55,263 bases of DNA from Paracoccaceae bacterium (GTDB lineage Bacteria; Pseudomonadota; Alphaproteobacteria; Rhodobacterales; Rhodobacteraceae): the NCBI GenBank assembly GCA_947504705.1, contig CANNIA010000023.1:1-55263 (forward strand). Reading direction: 5' to 3'. Below are positions 28,680-55,263 of this stretch, piece by piece. The notes beneath the pieces were generated by a model that ran no database searches, was not told the DNA's origin, and saw only the letters and a program-made list of their open reading frames with translations. A program made the position numbers and the translations under genes. Numbering within the stretch: position 1 is the stretch's first letter; every line of letters starts with the position of its first letter.

Positions 28680-29609
28680 ATGCAAACCTATCGCCATGGT
28701 TCCGAACCTTTCAGCCTGCAGCGCCGTAACCTCAAGGGCGGGACGAAAGCGCTGGAAGGTTGGGGCTTTCGCAACGAAACCGATCCCCTGACCGATGTGC
28801 TTTTGGGCAGCCCCGCGCATTTGCGGCACCTGTCGACCTCCAGCCTGTCGCGCAAGCACCTGCGCGAGGCACCCTGCAACGTTCAGGTGGCGCAGGCGCA
28901 GCATGCCGAACTGGTCTCGGCCTATGAACATTTCGGGGTCAAGGTGCACCTGCACAAGCCGACGCCTGAACTGCCGATGCAGGTCTATGCCCGCGACAGT
29001 TCGGTGATGACCCCCTATGGCGCGATCATCACCGCCATGGCGAACTGGTGGCGGCGGGGCGAGAATTACGCGGCGATCCGCACCTATGAACAGCTCGGCA
29101 TCCCGATCTACGATATGGTGACCGCCGGCACCTTCGAGGGCGGCGATTTCAACGTGATCGAAGAGGGCTGCGTCCTGATCGGTTGCGGCGGGGCGCGGAC
29201 TCAGGAGGAGGGCGCGCGGCAAGTGCAAAGCTGGTTCGAGGCCGAGGGTTGGGAAACCCGGCTGGCCTTCATCGATGAATACTATGTCCACATCGACCTG
29301 ATGGTGGTGCCGATTGCGCCGAAACTGACGGCCGTCTGCCTTGATTGCACCGAGCCTGGCATTGTCGATTGGCTGAAGGCCAAGGGGCATGAAATCATTG
29401 ACGTGCCCTTCAAGGACACCATGGCGCTGGGCTGCAACTTCATGTCGCTAGGCCGCGACCGGGTCATCGCTCCGACGGTGTCGAAATCGCTGATTGATCA
29501 ACTTCGCGCTCGCGGCTTCGAAGTGGCTGACATCGACATGTCCGAGATTTCAAAAACCGGCGGTGGTATCCATTGCATGGCGCAAGCCCTGCGGCGCGAG
29601 GCAGCCTGA
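28680..29609 (+). CDS. Amidinotransferase/arginine-deiminase-fold hydrolase (DDAH-like)
   Basis: This 309-residue guanidino-modifying enzyme shows the superfamily's catalytic marks: YARDSSVM, GTFEGGDFN (Glu and Asp), the His-Asp pair YYVHIDLMV, and a C-terminal nucleophile Cys in GGGIHCMAQALRR. Relatives hydrolyse methylarginines, arginine or citrulline-type substrates, or transfer amidino groups. AAGGAG lies nine bases before ATG 28680. Together with the M20 enzyme and the importer it suggests catabolism of an arginine-derived or guanidino compound. Confidence 0.87.
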   Translation: MQTYRHGSEPFSLQRRNLKGGTKALEGWGFRNETDPLTDVLLGSPAHLRHLSTSSLSRKHLREAPCNVQVAQAQHAELVSAYEHFGVKVHLHKPTPELPMQVYARDSSVMTPYGAIITAMANWWRRGENYAAIRTYEQLGIPIYDMVTAGTFEGGDFNVIEEGCVLIGCGGARTQEEGARQVQSWFEAEGWETRLAFIDEYYVHIDLMVVPIAPKLTAVCLDCTEPGIVDWLKAKGHEIIDVPFKDTMALGCNFMSLGRDRVIAPTVSKSLIDQLRARGFEVADIDMSEISKTGGGIHCMAQALRREAA

Positions 29610-29645
29610 GGCAAAAGGTCAAATGGACTGCCACACTCGGTCTGT

Positions 29646-29828: not shown

Positions 29829-30542
29829 TTAACCGTTGACCACGGCGCGGCGCACTTTTGCGCTTGAGGGATATTGCAGGTTCCTTTGAAAGCTCCGGTT
29901 GGCATCCGGCCGCCCAAGGCGCTGGCCCCCTTTTTCCGCAGCACGGATCTTTTCGACGCTCGACATTTCGGCCAACTGCGCCCCGGAAACCGAGGCTTCC
30001 CCCCAATAGTCCAGAAGGCGCGGGAAACCTGCCGCGCTGTCGGCGCGCATGTCTTCGCAGTTCAAGACCAGACAGTCGCCACGCGCCTGCACATGATCCA
30101 GCCAAAGGCGATTGAATGCGCAAATTTTCTGCACGCCATAGAGCGGGCTAAGAACGAAGGCATCGATGCTTCGTGGCGGCAATCTGCGGCGCAGCGCCAA
30201 TGGAAGCCATTCGGAAAACCAACGCCAGGATCCGCGCGGCAAAACCCTTCGCGTGGTCTGGTAATTGAACGACACAGCCGTATCGATCGGATTGCGATGC
30301 AGCAATACCACCGAGCGAGCATGCAACTCGGCCGGTATGTCCTGGTACTGCTTCCCGATCACCCTCTTGCCAAGCGCGCCACAGGCGTGACAGACCTCTA
30401 CATCAATCTTTGCCAACCCTATGGCAAACCGAAGCCAAGTGCGGCCAGACTTGGGAAAGCTGACAAGAAGCAGCTTGGAGTTGGACGAGAGCAGTGAGTT
30501 GTCGTCCCGTTTCGATCCATTCGATTTCCGCATCAGCGTCAC
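29829..30542 (-). CDS. PAPS-dependent sulfotransferase family protein
   Basis: The 237-residue protein has the 5'-phosphosulfate loop LLVSFPKSGRTWLRFAIG (about residues 25-42) and the 3'-phosphate motif VVLLHRNPIDTAVSFNYQ (about 77-94). These are the two defining sulfotransferase motifs, together with a C-terminal LNCEDMRADSAAGFPRLLDY segment. The GTG start follows GAGGGAAG. The protein is somewhat short for cytosolic sulfotransferases (250-300). It is divergent from a second sulfotransferase-like gene. The acceptor is unknown: capsule, lipid, or a product of the A-T-TE enzyme nearby. Confidence 0.82.
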   Translation of the reverse strand: MTLMRKSNGSKRDDNSLLSSNSKLLLVSFPKSGRTWLRFAIGLAKIDVEVCHACGALGKRVIGKQYQDIPAELHARSVVLLHRNPIDTAVSFNYQTTRRVLPRGSWRWFSEWLPLALRRRLPPRSIDAFVLSPLYGVQKICAFNRLWLDHVQARGDCLVLNCEDMRADSAAGFPRLLDYWGEASVSGAQLAEMSSVEKIRAAEKGGQRLGRPDANRSFQRNLQYPSSAKVRRAVVNG

Positions 30543-31004
30543 TTTCTTCCCTCAATAAAGCAAACACCAAGGGGTCAATATCTGCATTGATATCAAGGCC
30601 GCCACCGATACTACCAAACCACTTTTCCATGAGGAACGTGACCTGAGCCCCGCCTTCTCTCCGGGGTACGTGAGGGTCGGAGCACTTCCGTTCCCGGCCC
30701 CCGACATTGGAATGCTGTCTCTGCGGCTCAGGGCCATTGCGTGACGGCAACGCTCGCATTATGACTGACCGTCAAATTCGGACGATCAGTCGACAGCAGC
30801 CTTCGCTTGGACTTGCGCGGCAGGGGCTTGATTGGTCAGCCAGACAGACTTGGCCGCGGGTCGATCGATCCTTTGGCCAGTGGAGGATCGCTTGGCTAAA
30901 TCCTCGACCATCGCGCAGTTCCTTCCTTTCTCCTTCGTTTTCGCCGCCGAAACCAGCCTTGCTGCCTGACAGCTTACCCGTCCCAGAACCCAAGTCGAAT
31001 TGAC
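30543..31004. other. 462-bp intergenic region between divergent sulfotransferase-like genes
   Basis: No convincing gene was found. The notable item is an imperfect inverted repeat at 30763-30791 (GACTGACCGTC and GACGATCAGTC, one mismatch, loop AAATTCG). It could be an operator serving both divergent genes, or a hairpin. Composition here is less GC-rich than in the flanking catabolic genes. Confidence 0.4.
30763..30791. promoter_or_regulatory. Eleven-bp-arm inverted repeat between the sulfotransferase genes
   Basis: The arms match at 10 of 11 positions around a 7-base loop. It lies mid-intergenic, about equally far from both divergent starts, as a shared operator would. No adjacent regulator gene is evident. 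Confidence 0.4.
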
Positions 31005-31871
31005 ATGAAAAAGAAGATCATCTGGCACCTCGGGTTCCGTAAGACTGGAACCACCTCCATCCAGTATCTGCTGGACCATTTGCCGGCCGAAAGTCATCCG
31101 GACCTGTTCGTTTCGCCCCGGGATCATCTGACCCGGGCCTGGCGGCAACTTATTGTAGCCGCAACCACCACCCGAACCCGTCCGGATCTGACCAAGGTTA
31201 GGGCGGAAATTGCCAAGGTTGCCGCTGAGCTTCGTGCTGCGCCCCAAAATACGATCCTTGTGTCGGACGAGAACCTGTTCGCCTTTTCCCTGTTCGCGCC
31301 GGATGGCAGCCATTTCTTTGACTGGGCGGCCGAGGTTCTGCCGCTGATCGAAGCTGAATTTCCGGACTTCGAGAATGTCTTCTTTGCCTACACGCGCCCT
31401 TTGGAAAACTGGCTCAAGAGCAGCTACTCGCAAGAGGTCAAGCGCGGGCGGACCTGGCGGACCTATGAGACCTGGCGCAAGCAGGTACCTGAAAGCTGCA
31501 ATTGGACGGACGGGCTCGCGACCATCCGGGCCGCCATTCGCTCGCCTCTCGTCATGATCAAGCAGACCGACGATCTGGACCAGGGCCTGCCTTTGGGAGC
31601 CGGTTTGCTGGAGTTCGCCGGTATTCCCCGCGCGGATGTCGTCAAACTTGGACCGGCCCCAAGGCTGAACGAAGGGCTTTCATCAACGACCATGCGCATG
31701 TTCCGGCTGTTCAACTTTATTGGGTTGAACGGCTTTATCCGCAGCGTTGTAAAGCGTCGGTTCCGCGCACGAGAGCTGTCGCGCTACCGCGAAGAAGCGC
31801 TTGCTGCTGACGCTCGTACGAAGCAACTCGGTGCCGCTGATGAAGCAAAACTCAAAAAAACTGAAAAATAG
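31005..31871 (+). CDS. Sulfotransferase-like P-loop protein
   Basis: The 288-residue protein begins IIWHLGFRKTGTTSIQYLLD, a clear phosphosulfate-binding loop at residues 4-23. It has a later FFAYTRPLENWLKSSYSQ resembling the 3'-phosphate motif with Arg-Pro in the conserved place. The middle and C-terminus are divergent, ending in a Lys-rich tail. It belongs to the broad bacterial sulfotransferase-like group often found in capsule and polysaccharide loci. No strong ribosome site precedes ATG 31005. It lies 90 bp before the amidohydrolase gene on the same strand. Confidence 0.78.
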   Translation: MKKKIIWHLGFRKTGTTSIQYLLDHLPAESHPDLFVSPRDHLTRAWRQLIVAATTTRTRPDLTKVRAEIAKVAAELRAAPQNTILVSDENLFAFSLFAPDGSHFFDWAAEVLPLIEAEFPDFENVFFAYTRPLENWLKSSYSQEVKRGRTWRTYETWRKQVPESCNWTDGLATIRAAIRSPLVMIKQTDDLDQGLPLGAGLLEFAGIPRADVVKLGPAPRLNEGLSSTTMRMFRLFNFIGLNGFIRSVVKRRFRARELSRYREEALAADARTKQLGAADEAKLKKTEK

Positions 31872-31961
31872 GGTCGAGATCGCACGGCATTCGGGTACCA
31901 ATGCGGACAGGATTGTTTGACCGAACAGATGCGGCAACAGAGTTTGCCAAGAGAGCCAGCA

Positions 31962-33104
31962 ATGAAGCGTACAAAGTTTTCCCCCTTCTTCGAAACGCTT
32001 GATGCCAAGATCCAGGCCTATGGCGGTGCGTTCAACGCACATCTGCACATTGATCGTGCCGGGACCTATGATGAAACGGTCCGGCTCTTGCAGGAGCGTG
32101 GGGTTCGGGACGGGGCAAATTCCACCCTGGCCGGCAAGCATTCGATGATCCCGATGATCCATGCCAGTCATCTCTACGACCCTAAAAGCCTGATCGAGCG
32201 GGTGTCCTTATTTCTGGATGCGATGATCGAAGTGGGAACGGTTCGCGCGGATTCGGTGGTTGACGTGACGACAGACCGGGTGGGCACGACAGCACTTGAT
32301 ACCCTTCTGGAGCTGAGTTCACGCTACGCTGGCCGCATCGATTTTCGGCTCGGGGCCTATTCGCCGCTTGGGTTTCGCGATGATGAACCGGCCCGCTGGG
32401 CGCTTGTCGAAGGCGCAGTGGAGCGCGCCCATTTCATGGGTATCCTGCCTGAACGCGATGATCGCGGCGATTATCCTGACCATATCGGCTTTGCGGAATG
32501 CTGCCGCCGCAGCCTTGTGCTTGCAGCCCGGCACGGCAAGGATCTGCACATACATGTCGATCAGGCCAATCACCCCAATGAAGGCGGAGGTGAAGTTGTG
32601 GCACGCCTGGTGAGTGAGCTGGGACTGGGGCGAAAGCCGGGGACAACGCCCTTTGTCTGGCTGATCCACCTGATTTCCCCGTCAACCTATCCCGAACCAA
32701 GGTTCCGCGCCTTGGCAGAGGATCTGGCCGAGCTTGGCATTGGCGTGATCTGCTGCCCCTCCGCTGCAATCAGCATGCGTCAACTGCGGCCTTTGATGTC
32801 GCCAGCTTATAACTGCATCGCGCGCGTGCTGGATCTTATGGACGCCGGGGTTCAAGTCAGGATCGGATCTGACAACGTCTGCGACATCACCTCGCCGATG
32901 GGGACGCCGGATCTGCTGGAAGAGATCTTCGTGCTGGCAAACGCCATGCGCATTTATGACACAGGCATCCTTGCCCGGATTGCAGTCGGCCAACCGCTGG
33001 ACGATGCCGAGAGAGTCCGGCTTCGCAAACATCTTGAGGAAGATGCCGCAGCGGTCGCGCAACTGATGGACAAACATGCCAAGCCACGTCCGACCGAAGG
33101 CTGA
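31962..33104 (+). CDS. Amidohydrolase-superfamily deaminase/hydrolase (cytosine-deaminase-like)
   Basis: The protein has about 380 residues with the amidohydrolase metal set: NAHLHIDRAG (HxH), LHIHVDQANHP (His with two further ligands), WLIHLISPS (His) and IGSDNVCD (Asp). The HxHID and HVDQ forms resemble cytosine deaminase and atrazine-chlorohydrolase-type enzymes. ATG 31962 is chosen; a TTG at 31917 with AGGA in front is an alternative adding 15 residues. The stop lies 4 bp before the A-T-TE gene, so the two are co-translated. The substrate is unknown. Confidence 0.82.
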   Translation: MKRTKFSPFFETLDAKIQAYGGAFNAHLHIDRAGTYDETVRLLQERGVRDGANSTLAGKHSMIPMIHASHLYDPKSLIERVSLFLDAMIEVGTVRADSVVDVTTDRVGTTALDTLLELSSRYAGRIDFRLGAYSPLGFRDDEPARWALVEGAVERAHFMGILPERDDRGDYPDHIGFAECCRRSLVLAARHGKDLHIHVDQANHPNEGGGEVVARLVSELGLGRKPGTTPFVWLIHLISPSTYPEPRFRALAEDLAELGIGVICCPSAAISMRQLRPLMSPAYNCIARVLDLMDAGVQVRIGSDNVCDITSPMGTPDLLEEIFVLANAMRIYDTGILARIAVGQPLDDAERVRLRKHLEEDAAAVAQLMDKHAKPRPTEG

Positions 33105-33108
33105 CGAC

Positions 33109-35772
33109 ATGCCCAACCAAGCTGCCTTTGCCCTTGACGCAGTTCCCCTGCCGGACCTTGCCCAAGCCTTCCCGGACATCCTGACGCTTTTGCGCAGGCG
33201 CGCCGTTGATTGCCCAGAGGTGATGGCGATCGAAGACCTGACCGGCGGCGGGCGCAGCTATTCGACTTTGCTGACCCGGGTTGAGACAATCGCTGCGCAG
33301 TTTTCCGCCGAGTGGAACCGGCCCGGTCGGCCCCGGATTGCCATCGTCATGCCGAATGGTGGCACCCTGTCCGAAACCTTGCTGGCTGCCACGGTGGTAG
33401 GGACTGCGCTGCCCTTCAATCCCGAATATACACCGCACGAATTCGACAGCTATTTCCGCGAGACCGAGATTGATTTTCTGGTCACTCTAAGCAGCTTCAA
33501 CACACCCGCGCGGAAAGCGGCAACACAGCTGGGCCTGAAGGTTCTGGACCTGGACCGGCTTTCGGCCCCGCCAGCCGCCGTCCAGCTTGCCACCCCGGCC
33601 CCGGATGATACCGCGATGGTCCTTCTGACCTCGGGGTCTACGGGACGCGCAAAACGCGTGCCACTGACGCACCGGAATGTCTGCACCTCTGCCCGTGATG
33701 TCAGCGTTTCGTTGGAGCTGACACCCGCAGACCGTTGTCTGAGCATGTGGGAACTCTACCATGTGGGTGGCTTGGTCGACCTCTTGCTTGCCCCCTTGCA
33801 TTCGGGCGGCACGGTCATTGCCACGCAAGGCTTCGAGGCCGCCCAATTCTTCGATATCCTGTCGACACGCAAGCCAACCTGGTATCAGGGCGTTCCCACT
33901 GCGCTTGGCGAACTGGCGCTGTTGGCGCGCCGAAACGGTTTTGTTGCCGATGGCTCAAGCCTGCGCTTTCTGCGGTCGGTGGCTGCCGCACTTTCGCCCG
34001 CGCTGATGGCCGAGATTGAGGCCCTTTTCGGCGTGCCAGTCCTGCAGACATTTGGCATGACCGAGGCTTCCCCGCTGATCTGTTCAACCGGGTTTGACGC
34101 TGCTGACCGCATTCCAGGTTCGGTCGGGCGATCCTACGGCACCAAGATCGGTATCTTCAATGACACTTGGCAGCGCCAAGGTGGCGGGGTTGAGGGTGAA
34201 GTCGCGATCCAAGGTCCGAACGTATTCCATGGCTATGAGGCCGATCCCGAAGCGAACGCGGCGGCTTTCCGCGAAGGGTGGTTTCGCACTGGGGATCTGG
34301 GCCGGCTGGATGCCGAAGGCCGCCTGTTTCTGACCGGCCGGATCAAGGAGCTGGTCAATCGCGGTGGTGAAAAGGTCAACCTGCGTGAAGTTGACGATGC
34401 TTTGCTGACACATGCCGCTGTGTTCGAAGCGGCTTCGTTTCCGGTACCGCATCGCACCCTTGGCGAAGACGTGGCTGCCTGCGTAGTCCTGCGGCCCGGC
34501 GCGATCGCGTCGGAAAGCGAGATTAGGGCCGCGCTTGCTGATCGACTTGCAGCCTTCAAGATCCCGCGACGCATTCTTTTTCTTGCGTCCCTTCCCAGAA
34601 ATGCTGTTGGCAAGATCGACCGCCGCCAGCTTGCCACCGATGCAATCGAGAGGCTTGAGGCAGAGGCAGCCTTGACCGCAAGCAACGGGGCCGAACCAAC
34701 GAGTGACGCCGAAGCGCGGATTGCCGCTATCTGGGCACAAGAGCTTGGCTTGCCTTCGGTCGGTCCGGAAGACGACTTTGGCGTCCTTGGCGGCGACTCT
34801 CTGGCTGGATTGCGCGTTCTTGTAGCCTTGGAGGCCGCGTTCGGCCTGTCGCTTCCCGACGACACGCTGGCACAGATCAGCACTGTACGCGCCATGACGG
34901 AGTTGGTGGCCGAACGCGGCACAGTGCGCAAGGTAGCATCTGCTTTGGTTGAAGGTGGGGTAACCGCCGAAGAGCTGCGCCAGATCAAGGCCGTGGTCGC
35001 CATGGGCCGTGTTCCGGTGCTGCGTGACGGTTCGCTCTTCAAGATCGTCAACCGGGATGGCAACAGGAAACCCCTCATCTGGTTCTTCAACTATCCTGCA
35101 AAGGAAATGGTTGAGCTTCATCACAAGTTTCCGCCCGACTATCCGCTTTTCGGGGGCTTCTCAGGCGGCAAGATTTTCGACATGAGCGACGCAACAATGG
35201 TGCGGCTCGCCCGCCAATATGCCGCAGAAATTGCGTCTGAATTTCCCGACGGCAGCTTCATTCTGGGCGGCAACTGCAAGGGCGGTCTGCTGGCCTGGGA
35301 AGTGGCTAAACAGCTTCAGGCCAAAGGCCGCGAAGTTGAGCGGCTTTGCCTGATGGAATATTCCAGCCCCGAACTCGCACGGTTCGATGGGCCGCTTCTG
35401 ATGATGTTCAAGAAGCAAAGTCGTCAGAAGGCCTACCGGGAAATCGGCTGGGGCAAGGAAGGCTGGGAGCGGGCCTTTCCCCGGATCCCGACAACGACCT
35501 GGATCGAAGGTGCGCATGGCGGGTCGTTTCGCCGTGGAGAGCTGCAAAGCTTTCTCTATACGCTGCTGGCGTTTTTGAACGATACACCGGTGACAGACGG
35601 AACGCTGGAGACTCCAGCTGGGCGACGCATCCTAAGAATTCACCAGAGCAAGCTTCTGTTCGGTCTCTTTCGGGCGGCAAGCAAGATATCGTCACGCTTG
35701 CGTTATGGACGAAGCGCCAAATTTGCTGCCTTTCGCCAGCCGCCGGCAGTGGGATCGAGCAAGCCGCGATGA
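33109..35772 (+). CDS. NRPS-like adenylation-carrier-thioesterase (A-T-TE) enzyme with Cys thioesterase nucleophile
   Basis: The 887-residue protein has three domains. The adenylation domain spans about 1-515: TSGSTGRAKRVPLTHRN at 174-190, FGMTEASPL, WFRTGDLG, Lys502 in PRNAVGKIDR. A peptidyl-carrier domain at about 530-605 has Ser564 in LGGDSLAGL for the phosphopantetheine arm. A type I thioesterase at about 655-825 has the nucleophile motif GGNCKGG with Cys723 where Ser is usual, Glu750 where the triad Asp is usual, and His803. It would activate one acid, load it on the carrier and release or cyclise it. With no condensation domain it is not a peptide synthetase on its own. It is coupled to the amidohydrolase gene. 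Confidence 0.85.
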   Translation: MPNQAAFALDAVPLPDLAQAFPDILTLLRRRAVDCPEVMAIEDLTGGGRSYSTLLTRVETIAAQFSAEWNRPGRPRIAIVMPNGGTLSETLLAATVVGTALPFNPEYTPHEFDSYFRETEIDFLVTLSSFNTPARKAATQLGLKVLDLDRLSAPPAAVQLATPAPDDTAMVLLTSGSTGRAKRVPLTHRNVCTSARDVSVSLELTPADRCLSMWELYHVGGLVDLLLAPLHSGGTVIATQGFEAAQFFDILSTRKPTWYQGVPTALGELALLARRNGFVADGSSLRFLRSVAAALSPALMAEIEALFGVPVLQTFGMTEASPLICSTGFDAADRIPGSVGRSYGTKIGIFNDTWQRQGGGVEGEVAIQGPNVFHGYEADPEANAAAFREGWFRTGDLGRLDAEGRLFLTGRIKELVNRGGEKVNLREVDDALLTHAAVFEAASFPVPHRTLGEDVAACVVLRPGAIASESEIRAALADRLAAFKIPRRILFLASLPRNAVGKIDRRQLATDAIERLEAEAALTASNGAEPTSDAEARIAAIWAQELGLPSVGPEDDFGVLGGDSLAGLRVLVALEAAFGLSLPDDTLAQISTVRAMTELVAERGTVRKVASALVEGGVTAEELRQIKAVVAMGRVPVLRDGSLFKIVNRDGNRKPLIWFFNYPAKEMVELHHKFPPDYPLFGGFSGGKIFDMSDATMVRLARQYAAEIASEFPDGSFILGGNCKGGLLAWEVAKQLQAKGREVERLCLMEYSSPELARFDGPLLMMFKKQSRQKAYREIGWGKEGWERAFPRIPTTTWIEGAHGGSFRRGELQSFLYTLLAFLNDTPVTDGTLETPAGRRILRIHQSKLLFGLFRAASKISSRLRYGRSAKFAAFRQPPAVGSSKPR

Positions 35773-35988
35773 AAGGCAGGTGACTGACGGCCGTTTCGGT
35801 GGAGTCTGAGGAAAATGCGAACTGTTCCCGTTTCCCATAGAACACCTTCTGGTTCCTCAGTTGGTGCTCTCCACATTCTCCGGGCAAGTCCGAACGTACC
35901 GTCTTAGTTCGGTGATCTTAGCGTTGCCTGAACGTCATTTTCTGCTGTTACGCCCATCGCGCTCCACCCCAAAAAGGACGTAACACAC

Positions 35989-36855
35989 ATGAAACACTTC
36001 GTCGGTTCTGGCCTTCTGGCCCTTAGTCTTGCCTTTGCCGCCCCGGTTGTGGCGCAGGAAACCATCCGTTTTGCGGTCACAGATATCGACGGCCTTGAAG
36101 CGCTTCAGCGCGAAATGGGTCCGTTCAAGGACGCTTTCGAGGCGGCTTCTGGCCTGAAAGTCGAGTTCTTCCCGGTTTCGGGCCGCACCATCGCGGTCGA
36201 GGCGATGGCTGCTGATCAAGTTGATTTCGTGCTGACCGGTCCGGCTGAATATGTCGTGTTCAACGCCCGTCTTGACGCCCAGCCCGTCGTGACCTTCAAG
36301 CGTCCCGACTATTACTCGAACGTCGTCGTGCTGGACGCCAGCCCGGTGCAGACCCCGGAAGACCTGAAGGGCATGAAGATATCCTTCGGCGAAATCGGCT
36401 CCACGTCGCAGCATCTGGGCCCGGTTGATCTTCTGGCAGCGGCCGGTCTGGTCTACTCGGTCGACTATGAACCCGTCTTCCTGAACCGCAACGTCGCGGT
36501 CGAGGCGCTGATCTCGGGTGACATCGCTGCGGTAGGCCTGAACCGGACCCACATCGACAAGATCACCGAAAAGTTCCCCGACCAGAAGTTCCGCGTCATC
36601 GTCAAGGGCGAGCAGCTGCCAGACGATATCCTGCTGGCTTCGCCCACCGTTTCGCCGGAAGTTGTTGACATCGTCCGCAAGACCTTTGCCGAACAGAGCG
36701 ATGCGCTCTTGGCCGCTGTCACCTCGACCGAAGAGAACGAAAAGTACATCGGCGGCAGCTTCAATGCCACGGTGACCGACGCCGACTATGACGTCGTGCG
36801 TAAGATGTACGAGAACATCGGCATCACCGAGTTCACCGAATTCGTCGGCGAGTAA
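35989..36855 (+). CDS. phnD: Phosphonate-type ABC substrate-binding protein, importer 1
   Basis: The 288-residue PhnD-family periplasmic protein has a Sec signal (LLALSLAFAAPVVAQ, cleavage after VVA). Mature-protein signature segments are PVSGRTIAVEAMAADQVDFVLTGPAEYVV and GEIGSTSQHLGPVDLLAAAG (the first spans residues about 63-91). The serine/threonine-rich loop binds the phosphonate oxyanion in this family. It heads phnDCE followed by phnM. It differs strongly from the second PhnD at 40733, so the two importers probably take different phosphonates, or one of them phosphite or phosphate esters. The 216 bp upstream hold only a weak Pho-box-like match. Confidence 0.9.
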   Translation: MKHFVGSGLLALSLAFAAPVVAQETIRFAVTDIDGLEALQREMGPFKDAFEAASGLKVEFFPVSGRTIAVEAMAADQVDFVLTGPAEYVVFNARLDAQPVVTFKRPDYYSNVVVLDASPVQTPEDLKGMKISFGEIGSTSQHLGPVDLLAAAGLVYSVDYEPVFLNRNVAVEALISGDIAAVGLNRTHIDKITEKFPDQKFRVIVKGEQLPDDILLASPTVSPEVVDIVRKTFAEQSDALLAAVTSTEENEKYIGGSFNATVTDADYDVVRKMYENIGITEFTEFVGE

Positions 36856-53473: not shown

Positions 53474-53586
53474 GGGCTCTGTTGCACAAATCCTGTCAGG
53501 GATTCATCTTCTGAATCCAGTGTTAGCTGGATGTCATGAGCAGACCGAACACACCGACCTACAAGACCCTCAACTGGCCCGCCTAG
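53474..53586 (+). mobile_element. Left end of an IS5-family element, truncated after 16 transposase codons
   Basis: The end reads GGGGCTCTGTTGCACAAATC, a typical IS5-family terminus, followed by a small hairpin (GGATTCA/TGAATCC at 53500-53518) and transposase start ATG 53536 (MSRPNTPTYKTLNWPA). The frame then ends at TAG 53584-53586 because the sequence switches to IS21 DNA. The family normally continues NWPAYNxAL, so the break falls in the Tyr codon. The rest of the element is gone. Confidence 0.8.
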
Positions 53587-54155
53587 CCTAACTCATCGAG
53601 GATCATGAGGTCGAGCTTGGTCAAACCATCCGCGATTTGCCCGGCCTTGCCTTTGGCCTTTTCTTGCTCGAGGGCGTTGACCAGTTCGATGGTTGAGAAG
53701 AAGCGGACCTTGCGGCGGTGGTGTTCGATGGCCTGGATGCCCAGGGCTGTAGCAATGTGGGTCTTGCCGGTTCCCGGGCCGCCGATCAGCACGATGTTCT
53801 GCGCTCCGTCCATGAACTCGCAGCGATGCAGTGTCCGGACTGTGGCCTCGTTGATCTCGCTGGTGGCAAAGTCGAAGCCCGAGAGGTCCTTGTAAGCCGG
53901 GAACCGCGCCGACTTCATGTGATAGGCGATCGACCGGACCTCGCGTTCGGCCAATTCAGCCTTCAGCAGTTGCGACAGCATCGGGATTGCCGCTTCAAAG
54001 GCCGGTGCGCCTTGCTCGATGAGGTCGGTGACGGCCTGCGCCATGCCATACATTTTGAGGCTGCGCAGCATGATGACGATGGCGCCGGCGGCGGGATCAT
54101 GACGCATGGCGGCCTCCGACAGTCTGGGCGCGTAGGCCGTCATAGCGTTCGACAT
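53583..54155 (-). pseudogene. istB: IS21 helper ATPase IstB, C-terminally truncated
   Basis: 190 codons remain of about 245-260. The N-terminal helical domain and AAA+ Walker A (VLIGGPGTGKTHIATALG) are intact. The Walker B region ends abruptly at LMILDELG followed by a stop formed by IS5 DNA, so sensor and arginine-finger parts are lost. IstB acts with IstA as target-selection ATPase and would not work in this form. It overlaps the istA frame by 59 bp. Confidence 0.9.
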
Positions 54156-55263
54156 TGGCCTTGGGCTCGCGGTGCAGGGTCAGTGCCTGTGGCGTATCCA
54201 GTGGCGACCCGCCCATGACCTTGCCGTCGATCAGGCGGTGCAACAGGTTCAGCACATGGGTCTTGGTGGGCACGCCCTCGGTCAGTGCCAGCTCCACGGC
54301 GGTGAGAACGGCTTGTTCATCGTGGTGCAAGACGAGGGCCAGGATATCTACCATCTCGCGATCACCGCCCGGTTTGCGAAGCATATGATCCTGCAACTGT
54401 CGGAAGGCAGACGGTAATTCCAGGAATGGCGCCCCATTCCGAAGCGCACCTGGTTTGCGTTGAACGACAGTCAGATAGCGTCGCCAGTCGTAGATCGTCT
54501 TCGGCGGAAGGTGATGGCTACGTTGGATCACGCGGACATGTTCGCACAGGATGTTGCCCTCAGCTGCCACAACCAGCCGGTCGGGATAGATCCGCAAGCT
54601 GACAGGGCGGTTGGCGAATGACGCCGGAACGCTATAGCGGTTGCGCTCAAAGCTGATCAGACTTGTGGGCGACACGCGTTTGCTCAGTTCGTGAAGCCAT
54701 CAAAGGCGATGGGCAACGGCATCAGCGCGGCCTGCTCCTCGGCCCAGACATCGGCGATGGTGCCGGGTTGTTTGCCATGCGGGGTCTGCCCCCATAACTC
54801 GAAGCAGCGCAGTTCCAGCCAGGCATTCAGCGCGGCAAGATCGGGGAAGCCCGGCATGCTTTGCAGCATCTGGTGACGAGAGTCGCGGACGTTCTTCTCA
54901 ACCTGGCCTTTCTCCCATCCTGCCGCTGGATTGCAGAACTCCGGCTCATAGACGTAGTGGTTCGTCATGGCCAAGAAGCGCATGTTGACCTGCCGTTCAG
55001 TGCCTCGGCCGACACGATCCACCGCGGTCTTCATGTTGTCGTAAACGCCCCGCGCAGGCACGCCGCCGAAGACCCGGAACGCGTGCCAATGGGCATCGAA
55101 CAGCATCTCGTGGGTCTGCAACGGATATGCCCGCAAAAGGAAAGCGCGGCTGTGCGACAGCTTGATATGCGCCATTTGCAGCTTGGTGCGCTCGCCGCCC
55201 AGAACGGCAAAGTCCTCGCTCCAGTCGAACTGGAAGGCCTCGCCGGGATCAAAATGCAGCGGC
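53584..55263 (-). mobile_element. Damaged IS21-family element (istA-istB), runs off the window
   Basis: It consists of istB and istA homologues in the usual overlapping order on the minus strand. The istB end is missing at the junction with the IS5 fragment, and istA carries a frameshift. The element's other end lies beyond 55263. Neither terminal repeat is visible, so the exact boundaries are unknown. Confidence 0.85.
54097..55263 (-). pseudogene. istA: IS21 transposase IstA, frameshifted and cut by window edge
   Basis: The visible part starts inside the DDE domain (FQFDWSEDFAVLGGE with the first catalytic Asp), then VYDNMKTAVDRV (second Asp region) and AAGWEKGQVEKNVR (catalytic Glu). After FDGF near 54690 the frame hits TGA. 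A one-base loss there restores the expected ELSKRVSPTSLISFERNRYS frame, which runs to 54097. The N-terminal DNA-binding part lies outside the window. The frameshift makes it inactive unless corrected by frameshifting. Confidence 0.88.

What the first reader, a model, noticed from the sequence alone, without database searches (positions are those of the whole stretch)
29829..35772. Possible undescribed small biosynthetic island: two sulfotransferases, an amidohydrolase and an A-T-TE enzyme
Seen: two sulfotransferase-like genes in divergent orientation, then a cytosine-deaminase-like amidohydrolase 4 bp ahead of a stand-alone adenylation-carrier-thioesterase protein. Known: A-T-TE enzymes without condensation domains activate and release or cyclise single acids, and sulfotransferases decorate small molecules or glycans. 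Inference: the group could make a sulfated amide, lactam or ester. It is flanked by catabolic genes on both sides and looks less GC-rich in its intergenic parts, as expected for an acquired unit. I know of no characterised cluster with this content.
Basis: partly seen in the sequence, partly recalled or inferred. Interest (0 to 1): 0.8.

Follow-up and report, generated by a model that had tools for sequence, protein, structure and literature searches.

The report
Small acquired sulfotransferase–amidohydrolase–synthetase gene cassette
A three-gene unit that looks acquired, and that a relative carries on a plasmid in the same order, probably loads a small acid onto a carrier protein, modifies it and releases it as an unknown, possibly sulfated, small molecule.

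Summary
The four genes are real and correctly placed. The group is an acquired-looking island: homology to same-genus genomes stops at 29602-29612 on the left and starts at 35972-36052 on the right, and its GC3 is the lowest of 35 four-gene blocks in the window. Only three of the four genes form a unit. Sulfotransferase 2, amidohydrolase (AH) and A-T-TE occur in the same order on a Gemmobacter aquarius plasmid (69, 79 and 67% identical); sulfotransferase 1 is absent there and has an in-frame stop near its C-terminus. The wider core is AH beside an A-T protein: 4 of the 5 close AH loci, whose A domains form one supported clade. In three other genomes a P450 sits in the AH gene run, with no close sulfotransferase 2. 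The A domain is nearest to oxalate-CoA ligase, and the TE has a Cys nucleophile. Best reading: a compact cassette that tailors an acid on its carrier (sulfation here, oxidation elsewhere) and releases it. Substrate and product are unknown.

The parts
29829..30542 (-). ST1, sulfotransferase-like, 237 aa, probably truncated by an in-frame TAA; inside the acquired segment but not part of the conserved cassette
   Evidence: Pfam PF00685 sub-threshold; stop followed by 23 more codons; two homologues run 18 and 32 residues further past the alignment end; absent from the Gemmobacter locus
31005..31871 (+). ST2, small P-loop sulfotransferase-like protein, 288 aa, first gene of the conserved cassette
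   Evidence: PF17784 sub-threshold; K13 T14 G15 T17 and R131, S139 invariant in 8 aligned proteins; AlphaFold pLDDT 85.8; Foldseek top hit sulfotransferase 3rnl, E=4.5e-5; 68.6% orthologue in L038
31962..33104 (+). AH, cytosine-deaminase/AtzC-like metal amidohydrolase, 380 aa, with Gln201 where cytosine deaminase has Glu
   Evidence: 78.7% orthologue in L038
33109..35772 (+). A-T-TE single-module synthetase, 887 aa: A domain 30-502, carrier 537-600 (GGDSL), TE with a GXCXG cysteine nucleophile
   Evidence: 67.2% orthologue in L038
29613..35971 (.). acquired-looking segment (island) between the DDAH-like gene and phnD
   Evidence: homology to same-genus loci ends 29602-29612 (3 loci fetched of 4 relatives with the gene) and starts 35972-36052 (7 fetched 20-kb loci of 17 relatives with phnD); lowest GC3 block

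Best explanation
ST2-AH-(A-T-TE) is a horizontally acquired three-gene biosynthetic cassette. The A domain adenylates a carboxylic acid (probably not a standard amino acid) and loads it onto its own carrier domain. A tailoring enzyme, ST2 here and a P450 in the sister loci, modifies the carrier-bound acyl group. The Cys-type thioesterase then releases it by hydrolysis, cyclisation or transfer. AH is a metal-dependent hydrolase that either makes the acid by opening an amide or N-heterocycle, or trims the released product. Shown here: the gene content, co-conservation, boundaries, domain make-up and active-site residues by alignment. Inferred: the order of steps, the carrier-bound sulfation and the role of AH. 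Unknown: substrate and product.
For: Order and spacing are conserved in Gemmobacter aquarius plasmid NZ_CP028919.1; blastn similarity between the window and that locus is confined to 31011-31747 and 31974-35436, and the long translated matches end near 35733. AH lies next to an A-T protein in 4 of the 5 close AH loci (window, L038, L040, L046; not L045). The four A domains form a clade (97/93 support) apart from 28 stand-alone-hit A domains of the family. P450 genes lie in the same gene run as AH in G266 (beside the A-T gene), G153 and G229 (both beside AH); to the G266 P450 they are the best of 13 matches in G153 and of 4 in G229. Precedents for carrier-bound tailoring: NikQ needs T-domain-loaded histidine (PMC10099666, passage); SulN sulfonates a PCP-bound tripeptide before a Cys-TE releases it (PMC11298585, passages). 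A domain nearest to oxalate-CoA ligase among solved structures, E=7.8e-88.
Against: No test of activity or substrate. The two histidine positions seen in plant oxalate-CoA ligase (LFHVHGL, MTEATHL) read LYHVGGL and MTEASPL here, so oxalate itself is unlikely. G229 has AH-P450 with no match to the A-T proteins in the 20 kb fetched, so AH also works without a neighbouring carrier. ST2 is only a sub-threshold sulfotransferase match. I saw no exporter or regulator among the ORFs of the island, and a PPTase was not looked for. The AH/A-T association rests on five loci.
Confidence: 0.5

Rival explanations
1. The cassette is biosynthetic, but ST2 and AH act off the carrier: AH makes the acid or removes an acyl group, A-T-TE links it to an amine or alcohol or hydrolyses it, and ST2 sulfates the finished small molecule.
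For: Same genes and co-conservation; most known sulfotransferases act on free acceptors (recalled); AH occurs without an A-T neighbour in G229.
Against: The tailoring partner differs (ST2 or P450) beside the same AH/A-T core, which suits modification of a shared carrier-bound intermediate; this is suggestive only.
Confidence: 0.25
2. The AH family is part of a catabolic or detoxifying pathway for an N-containing compound, and the carrier protein serves as a handle for oxidation or release.
For: G229 has AH, P450 and an MFS-like transporter in one run of genes, with a xanthine-dehydrogenase-like pair next to it (transporter and pair named by eye); the window flanks are catabolic; the nearest folds are AtzC and cytosine deaminase.
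Against: Flanking genes differ between AH loci (by eye); A-T-TE and sulfotransferase would be unusual for catabolism; the G229 neighbours may be coincidental.
Confidence: 0.12
3. The A-T-TE acylates, and ST2 sulfates, a cell-surface glycan or lipid rather than making a free molecule.
For: Related TE domains (31-32% identical) sit near glycosyltransferases on Rhodobacter sp. CZR27 and Methylomagnum plasmids, though not in the Paracoccus aminophilus and Phaeobacter stretches also fetched; glycosyltransferases lie 10-13 kb beyond the Gemmobacter cassette.
Against: No glycosyltransferase is annotated within 10 kb of the Gemmobacter A-T-TE (gene table incomplete), and no Pfam hit among the window genes scanned next to the island is one; nothing conserved links them.
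Confidence: 0.08
4. Four unrelated genes carried in together by chance.
For: ST1 is indeed a passenger.
Against: ST2-AH-A-T-TE keep order and spacing in Gemmobacter, and AH/A-T association is found in two further genera (G266, G153).
Confidence: 0.04

Closest known systems
Sulfazecin (monobactam) release system, SulN sulfotransferase plus SulM Cys-TE
   Same: A sulfotransferase paired with a carrier protein and a cysteine-nucleophile thioesterase (PMC11298585 passages).
   Different: No condensation domain; A domain not nearest to amino-acid domains; the TE has Asn-Cys-Lys instead of Gln-Cys-Asn, and its acid sits at position I (Glu) with none evident at position II (sequence only).
NikP1/NikQ-type beta-hydroxylation in nikkomycin biosynthesis (NikP1 as A-T-TE is recalled)
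   Same: An A-T unit loads a single acid so that a separate enzyme can modify it on the carrier; the sister loci have a P450 (PMC10099666 passage).
   Different: In the window a sulfotransferase stands in place of the P450, an amidohydrolase accompanies all four A-T loci (two found through A-T, one through AH, one the window itself), and the A domain is nearest to acyl-CoA ligases.
AB3403 NRPS thioesterase of Acinetobacter baumannii (PDB 4zxh)
   Same: Cys nucleophile with the acid after beta6 (position I).
   Different: Part of a multi-domain NRPS with Asp as the acid; here a stand-alone A-T-TE with Glu.
Fungal A-T-TE quinone/furanone synthetases
   Same: Thioesterase-ending NRPS-like enzymes that join aromatic alpha-keto acids (search listing and abstract starts only).
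   Different: No amidohydrolase or sulfotransferase partner named in the abstract starts I saw; A domain here is nearest to oxalate-CoA ligase among solved structures. Sequence relatedness to them not tested.
Cytosine deaminase / AtzC amidohydrolases
   Same: Fold and metal-site pattern.
   Different: Gln replaces the Glu three residues after the third ligand His in all five close AH proteins; 16-21% identity in the top 19 Foldseek matches, all AtzC-type or cytosine deaminases.

Membership tests
A-T-TE single-module NRPS-like synthetase | adenylation, carrier and thioesterase domains in one protein, no condensation domain | tested here: met
   four Pfam families at E<=0.01, all above cut-off, none a condensation domain
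A-T-TE single-module NRPS-like synthetase | carrier serine present | tested here: met
   GGDSL in the window, Gemmobacter and G153 proteins, DGDSL in G266
Monobactam/beta-lactone type TE (SulTE, ObiF) | cysteine nucleophile | tested here: met
   GGNCKGG aligned with the nucleophile site; not assayed
Monobactam/beta-lactone type TE (SulTE, ObiF) | catalytic Asp at position II, after beta7 | tested here: not met
   sequence only, TE not modelled: no Asp in LLMMFKKQSR; Glu at position I (LMEYSS) aligns with the AB3403 Asp (criterion)
Monobactam/beta-lactone type TE (SulTE, ObiF) | Gln-Cys-Asn motif (SulTE only) | tested here: not met
   Asn-Cys-Lys
PAPS-dependent sulfotransferase (ST2) | curated family threshold | tested here: not met
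   PF17784 20.0 bits against 22.8
PAPS-dependent sulfotransferase (ST2) | P-loop-like KTGTT loop and downstream Arg/Ser (role recalled) | tested here: met
   K13 T14 G15 T17 R131 S139 invariant in 8 aligned proteins
PAPS-dependent sulfotransferase (ST2) | sulfotransferase fold | tested here: inconclusive
   best Foldseek hit is sulfotransferase 3rnl, TM 0.41/0.46; the next hits are P-loop GTPases and kinases
Cytosine deaminase | metal ligands HxH, His, His, Asp | tested here: met
   H27, H29, H198, H236, D304 invariant in 5 AH proteins; H198, H236 and D304 align with cytosine deaminase, the HxH lies outside that alignment
Cytosine deaminase | catalytic Glu after the third His | tested here: not met
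   Gln201 in all five
Oxalate-CoA ligase | substrate-pocket histidines of the plant enzyme (oxalate-binding role recalled) | tested here: not met
   FHVHG to YHVGG; MTEATH to MTEASP
Sulfated natural-product cluster | a sulfated product | not testable with these tools
   needs metabolite analysis

The most novel reading that the evidence does not exclude
Sulfation-triggered release by a condensation-free synthetase: ST2 sulfates the carrier-bound acyl group and the Cys-thioesterase then uses the sulfate, as leaving group or as an N-/O-sulfo nucleophile, to cyclise or eliminate. The result would be a very small reactive product (lactone, lactam or alkene) made by only three genes, with AH supplying or unmasking the acid. 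The same AH/A-T core carries a P450 elsewhere, a plug-in tailoring site.
Probability: 0.1. Interest if true: 0.8.

Novelty: new variant of a known kind. Interest (0 to 1): 0.45.

Why it matters
If right, it would be a very small self-contained synthetase cassette. It suggests a fixed amidohydrolase/A-T core whose tailoring enzyme is exchanged (sulfotransferase or P450), which makes carrier-bound sulfation by a stand-alone A-T-TE directly testable with three proteins. Such short loci are easy to overlook because two of the three genes have no above-threshold Pfam match.

Tried and rejected
Four-gene set: rejected for ST1. SulTE-like monobactam release: the Cys nucleophile fits, but the acid position and the motif do not. 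Oxalate as substrate: pocket residues differ. Gemmobacter P450 as orthologue of the AH-linked P450s: no blastp match at E<=1e-3. An orthologue of that P450 elsewhere in the window's genome: only matches at E=3.2e-31 and 2.2e-22, in the range of the other, non-AH-linked P450s. IS or repeats bounding the island: two direct pairs of 14-17 nt and three inverted pairs of 14-24 nt, all inside the segment and chance-like; no tRNA; no Rfam match at gathering score. Promoter and terminator scan: no excess over shuffles. Genome-contig scan: one distant relative only (28%, Desulfobacterales; no AH or ST2 match below E=0.08 there). No true empty site was seen: DDAH-like and phnD neighbours were not adjacent in any locus compared. 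First pass missed the G229 P450 because a longer antisense ORF hid it; corrected.

Papers: searches. Passages read in PMC11298585, PMC6668435 and PMC10099666; all others seen as listings with abstract starts only.
Full report
Observation. Pfam finds AMP-binding, AMP-binding_C, PP-binding and Thioesterase in the 887-aa protein. The amidohydrolase (AH) matches no Pfam family at E<=0.01 and only sub-cut-off NCBIfam models, the uncharacterised PRK06886 first and cytosine deaminases after it; its nearest solved relatives are cytosine deaminases (E=1.2e-9). Both sulfotransferases fall below Pfam's cut-offs.

Is it an island? In the same genus the DDAH-like left neighbour occurs in 5 of 32 genomes, own included. 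I fetched 3 of the 4 relatives' loci at length, and in all 3 the window homology ends at 29602-29612, right at that gene's stop. The phnD right neighbour occurs in 18 of 32 genomes, own included. In the 7 loci of 20 kb that I fetched, homology starts at 35972-36052, with nothing upstream except one 46-bp stray match in one locus; two shorter loci start at 35973 and 35989. AH is in 1 of 32 genus genomes, the window's own. Over 38 window genes that I picked from the ORF list, the four have GC3 0.676, 0.675, 0.646 and 0.664; the other 34 average 0.766 (sd 0.037), one of them at 0.673. The island is the lowest of 35 four-gene blocks (0.665; next non-overlapping 0.731). Its genes have the four lowest codon-usage z-scores, but the mildest (-3.2) is close to the next gene (-3.0), and by the per-codon measure, which is not scaled for length, AH is not among the lowest four. 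No tRNA, long repeat or Rfam element bounds it, and no exact empty site was found.

Which genes belong together? Plasmid NZ_CP028919.1 of Gemmobacter aquarius carries ST2 (68.6%), AH (78.7%) and A-T-TE (67.2%) in the same order, with no ST1. DNA similarity between window and locus covers 31011-31747 and 31974-35436, and the long translated matches end near 35733. Among 72,556 plasmids this is the only record above 60% identity for A-T-TE, AH or ST2; ST1 has no plasmid match. AH at E<=1e-20 is in 4 of 295 family genomes, own included; in 1 of 398 phylum genomes, its own, at E<=1e-25; and, with a profile, in 2 of 318 class genomes at E<=1e-20, the second being a 29-33% relative in G786, fused to another domain and without A-T, P450 or ST2 matches at E<=1e-4 in 20 kb. 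ST2-like proteins at E<=1e-10 are in 28 of 295 family genomes, G266, G153 and G229 not among them; the best non-cassette ones are 36-39% identical, and in six loci of about 3.7 kb checked none had AH or A-T-TE. ST1 matches at E<=1e-5 are in 3 of 292 family genomes including its own. ST1 has an in-frame TAA at codon 238 followed by 23 more codons before the next stop, and its two homologues run 18 and 32 residues further past the end of the alignment. A truncation is the simplest reading; an assembly error cannot be excluded. I describe it only.

The wider module. Of the five close AH loci (45% identity or more to the window's; the distant G786 is left out), four have an A-T protein next to AH. 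They are the window; Gemmobacter; G266, where P450, A-T protein and AH run in one direction and the A-T protein ends in a different C-terminal region with a GTSGG motif and no Pfam thioesterase match; and G153, where AH and a P450 face an A-T-TE with a GGFCEGG motif, followed by a class-V aminotransferase. In G229 AH is followed by a P450 and an MFS-like transporter, with no match to the A-T proteins in 20 kb. The G153 and G229 P450s are 49% identical, and these AH-linked P450s are the best match to the G266 P450 among 13 matches in G153 and 4 in G229. In a tree of 39 A domains (these four, 28 from the top family hits, 7 others of the window's genome) the four AH-linked ones are one clade (97/93) beside the 28. 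That set was chosen by score (E<=1e-100), so more distant A-T proteins without AH may have been missed; the program also warns of long branches and of an unusual letter make-up, AT_G153 in both lists.

Chemistry read from sequence. Among solved structures the A domain is nearest to oxalate-CoA ligase (5ie0, E=7.8e-88), with the first amino-acid NRPS at E=4.1e-58. The sites that read FHVHG and MTEATH in the plant enzyme read YHVGG and MTEASP here, so the acid is probably not oxalate. The carrier has GGDSL. The TE nucleophile is Cys (GGNCKGG), with Glu where AB3403 has Asp (position I) and no Asp at the beta7 loop. By the criteria in PMC11298585 (passages) this is the AB3403 arrangement, not that of SulTE or ObiF. 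This rests on sequence alignment; the TE was not modelled. AH keeps H27, H29, H198, H236 and D304 but has Gln201 where cytosine deaminase has Glu, in all five proteins. Its AlphaFold model (pLDDT 75.2, four-sequence alignment, 45 of 380 residues below 50) matches AtzC and cytosine deaminase best. The ST2 model (pLDDT 85.8) finds a sulfotransferase first, weakly.

Mechanism. The best-supported reading is a carrier-tethered tailoring cassette: load an acid, modify it on the carrier (ST2 here, a P450 in sister loci), release it through a Cys-TE, with AH acting before or after. Published precedents are NikQ, which does not accept free histidine and needs it loaded on a T domain (PMC10099666, passage), and SulN, which sulfonates a PCP-bound tripeptide before Cys-TE release (PMC11298585, passages). 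Gene content, co-conservation, domains and residues are shown; the sequence of steps is inferred; substrate and product are unknown.

Novelty. Full-text searches for the combination returned no paper, and related searches listed none whose title or abstract start, as shown, describes it. The library lacks most subscription journals. I rate it a new variant of a known kind, compact NRPS-like clusters.

Noticed in passing
L038 4086-7990 (Gemmobacter aquarius plasmid): Four co-directed genes about 5 kb before the cassette: alpha/beta hydrolase, PF13469 sulfotransferase, P450, alpha/beta hydrolase. This may be a second part of the same pathway; the sulfotransferase is not similar to ST2, nor the P450 to the AH-linked P450s, at E<=1e-3.
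   Followed up: partly
L040 3033-6926 (G266): Next to the AH/A-T operon: an arginase-like ureohydrolase with a nitrate/taurine-type ABC transporter (named by eye), resembling guanidine hydrolase operons (recalled).
   Followed up: no
window 53583-55175: IS21-type genes (IstB, Pfam E=3.1e-40, and a Mu-transposase C-terminal match) at the right end of the contig, which is the window itself.
   Followed up: partly
window 29829-30542: ST1 has an in-frame stop near its C-terminus, followed by 23 homologous-looking codons.
   Followed up: yes
L003 (G000:C65:3101-5293): The window's genome has a second NRPS-like frame (open frame 1520 aa) matching A-T-TE at 28% over residues 76-825.
   Followed up: no
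L108 9590-11020 (G786): A distant AH relative fused behind an N-terminal domain that looks like a methylglyoxal-synthase-like domain (by eye).
   Followed up: no
L102 10109-16970 (Phaeobacter sp. G2 plasmid): A TE-like protein beside a separate AMP-binding protein, acyl carrier protein and carbamoyl transferase, next to hut genes: another compact acyl-activating locus.
   Followed up: no
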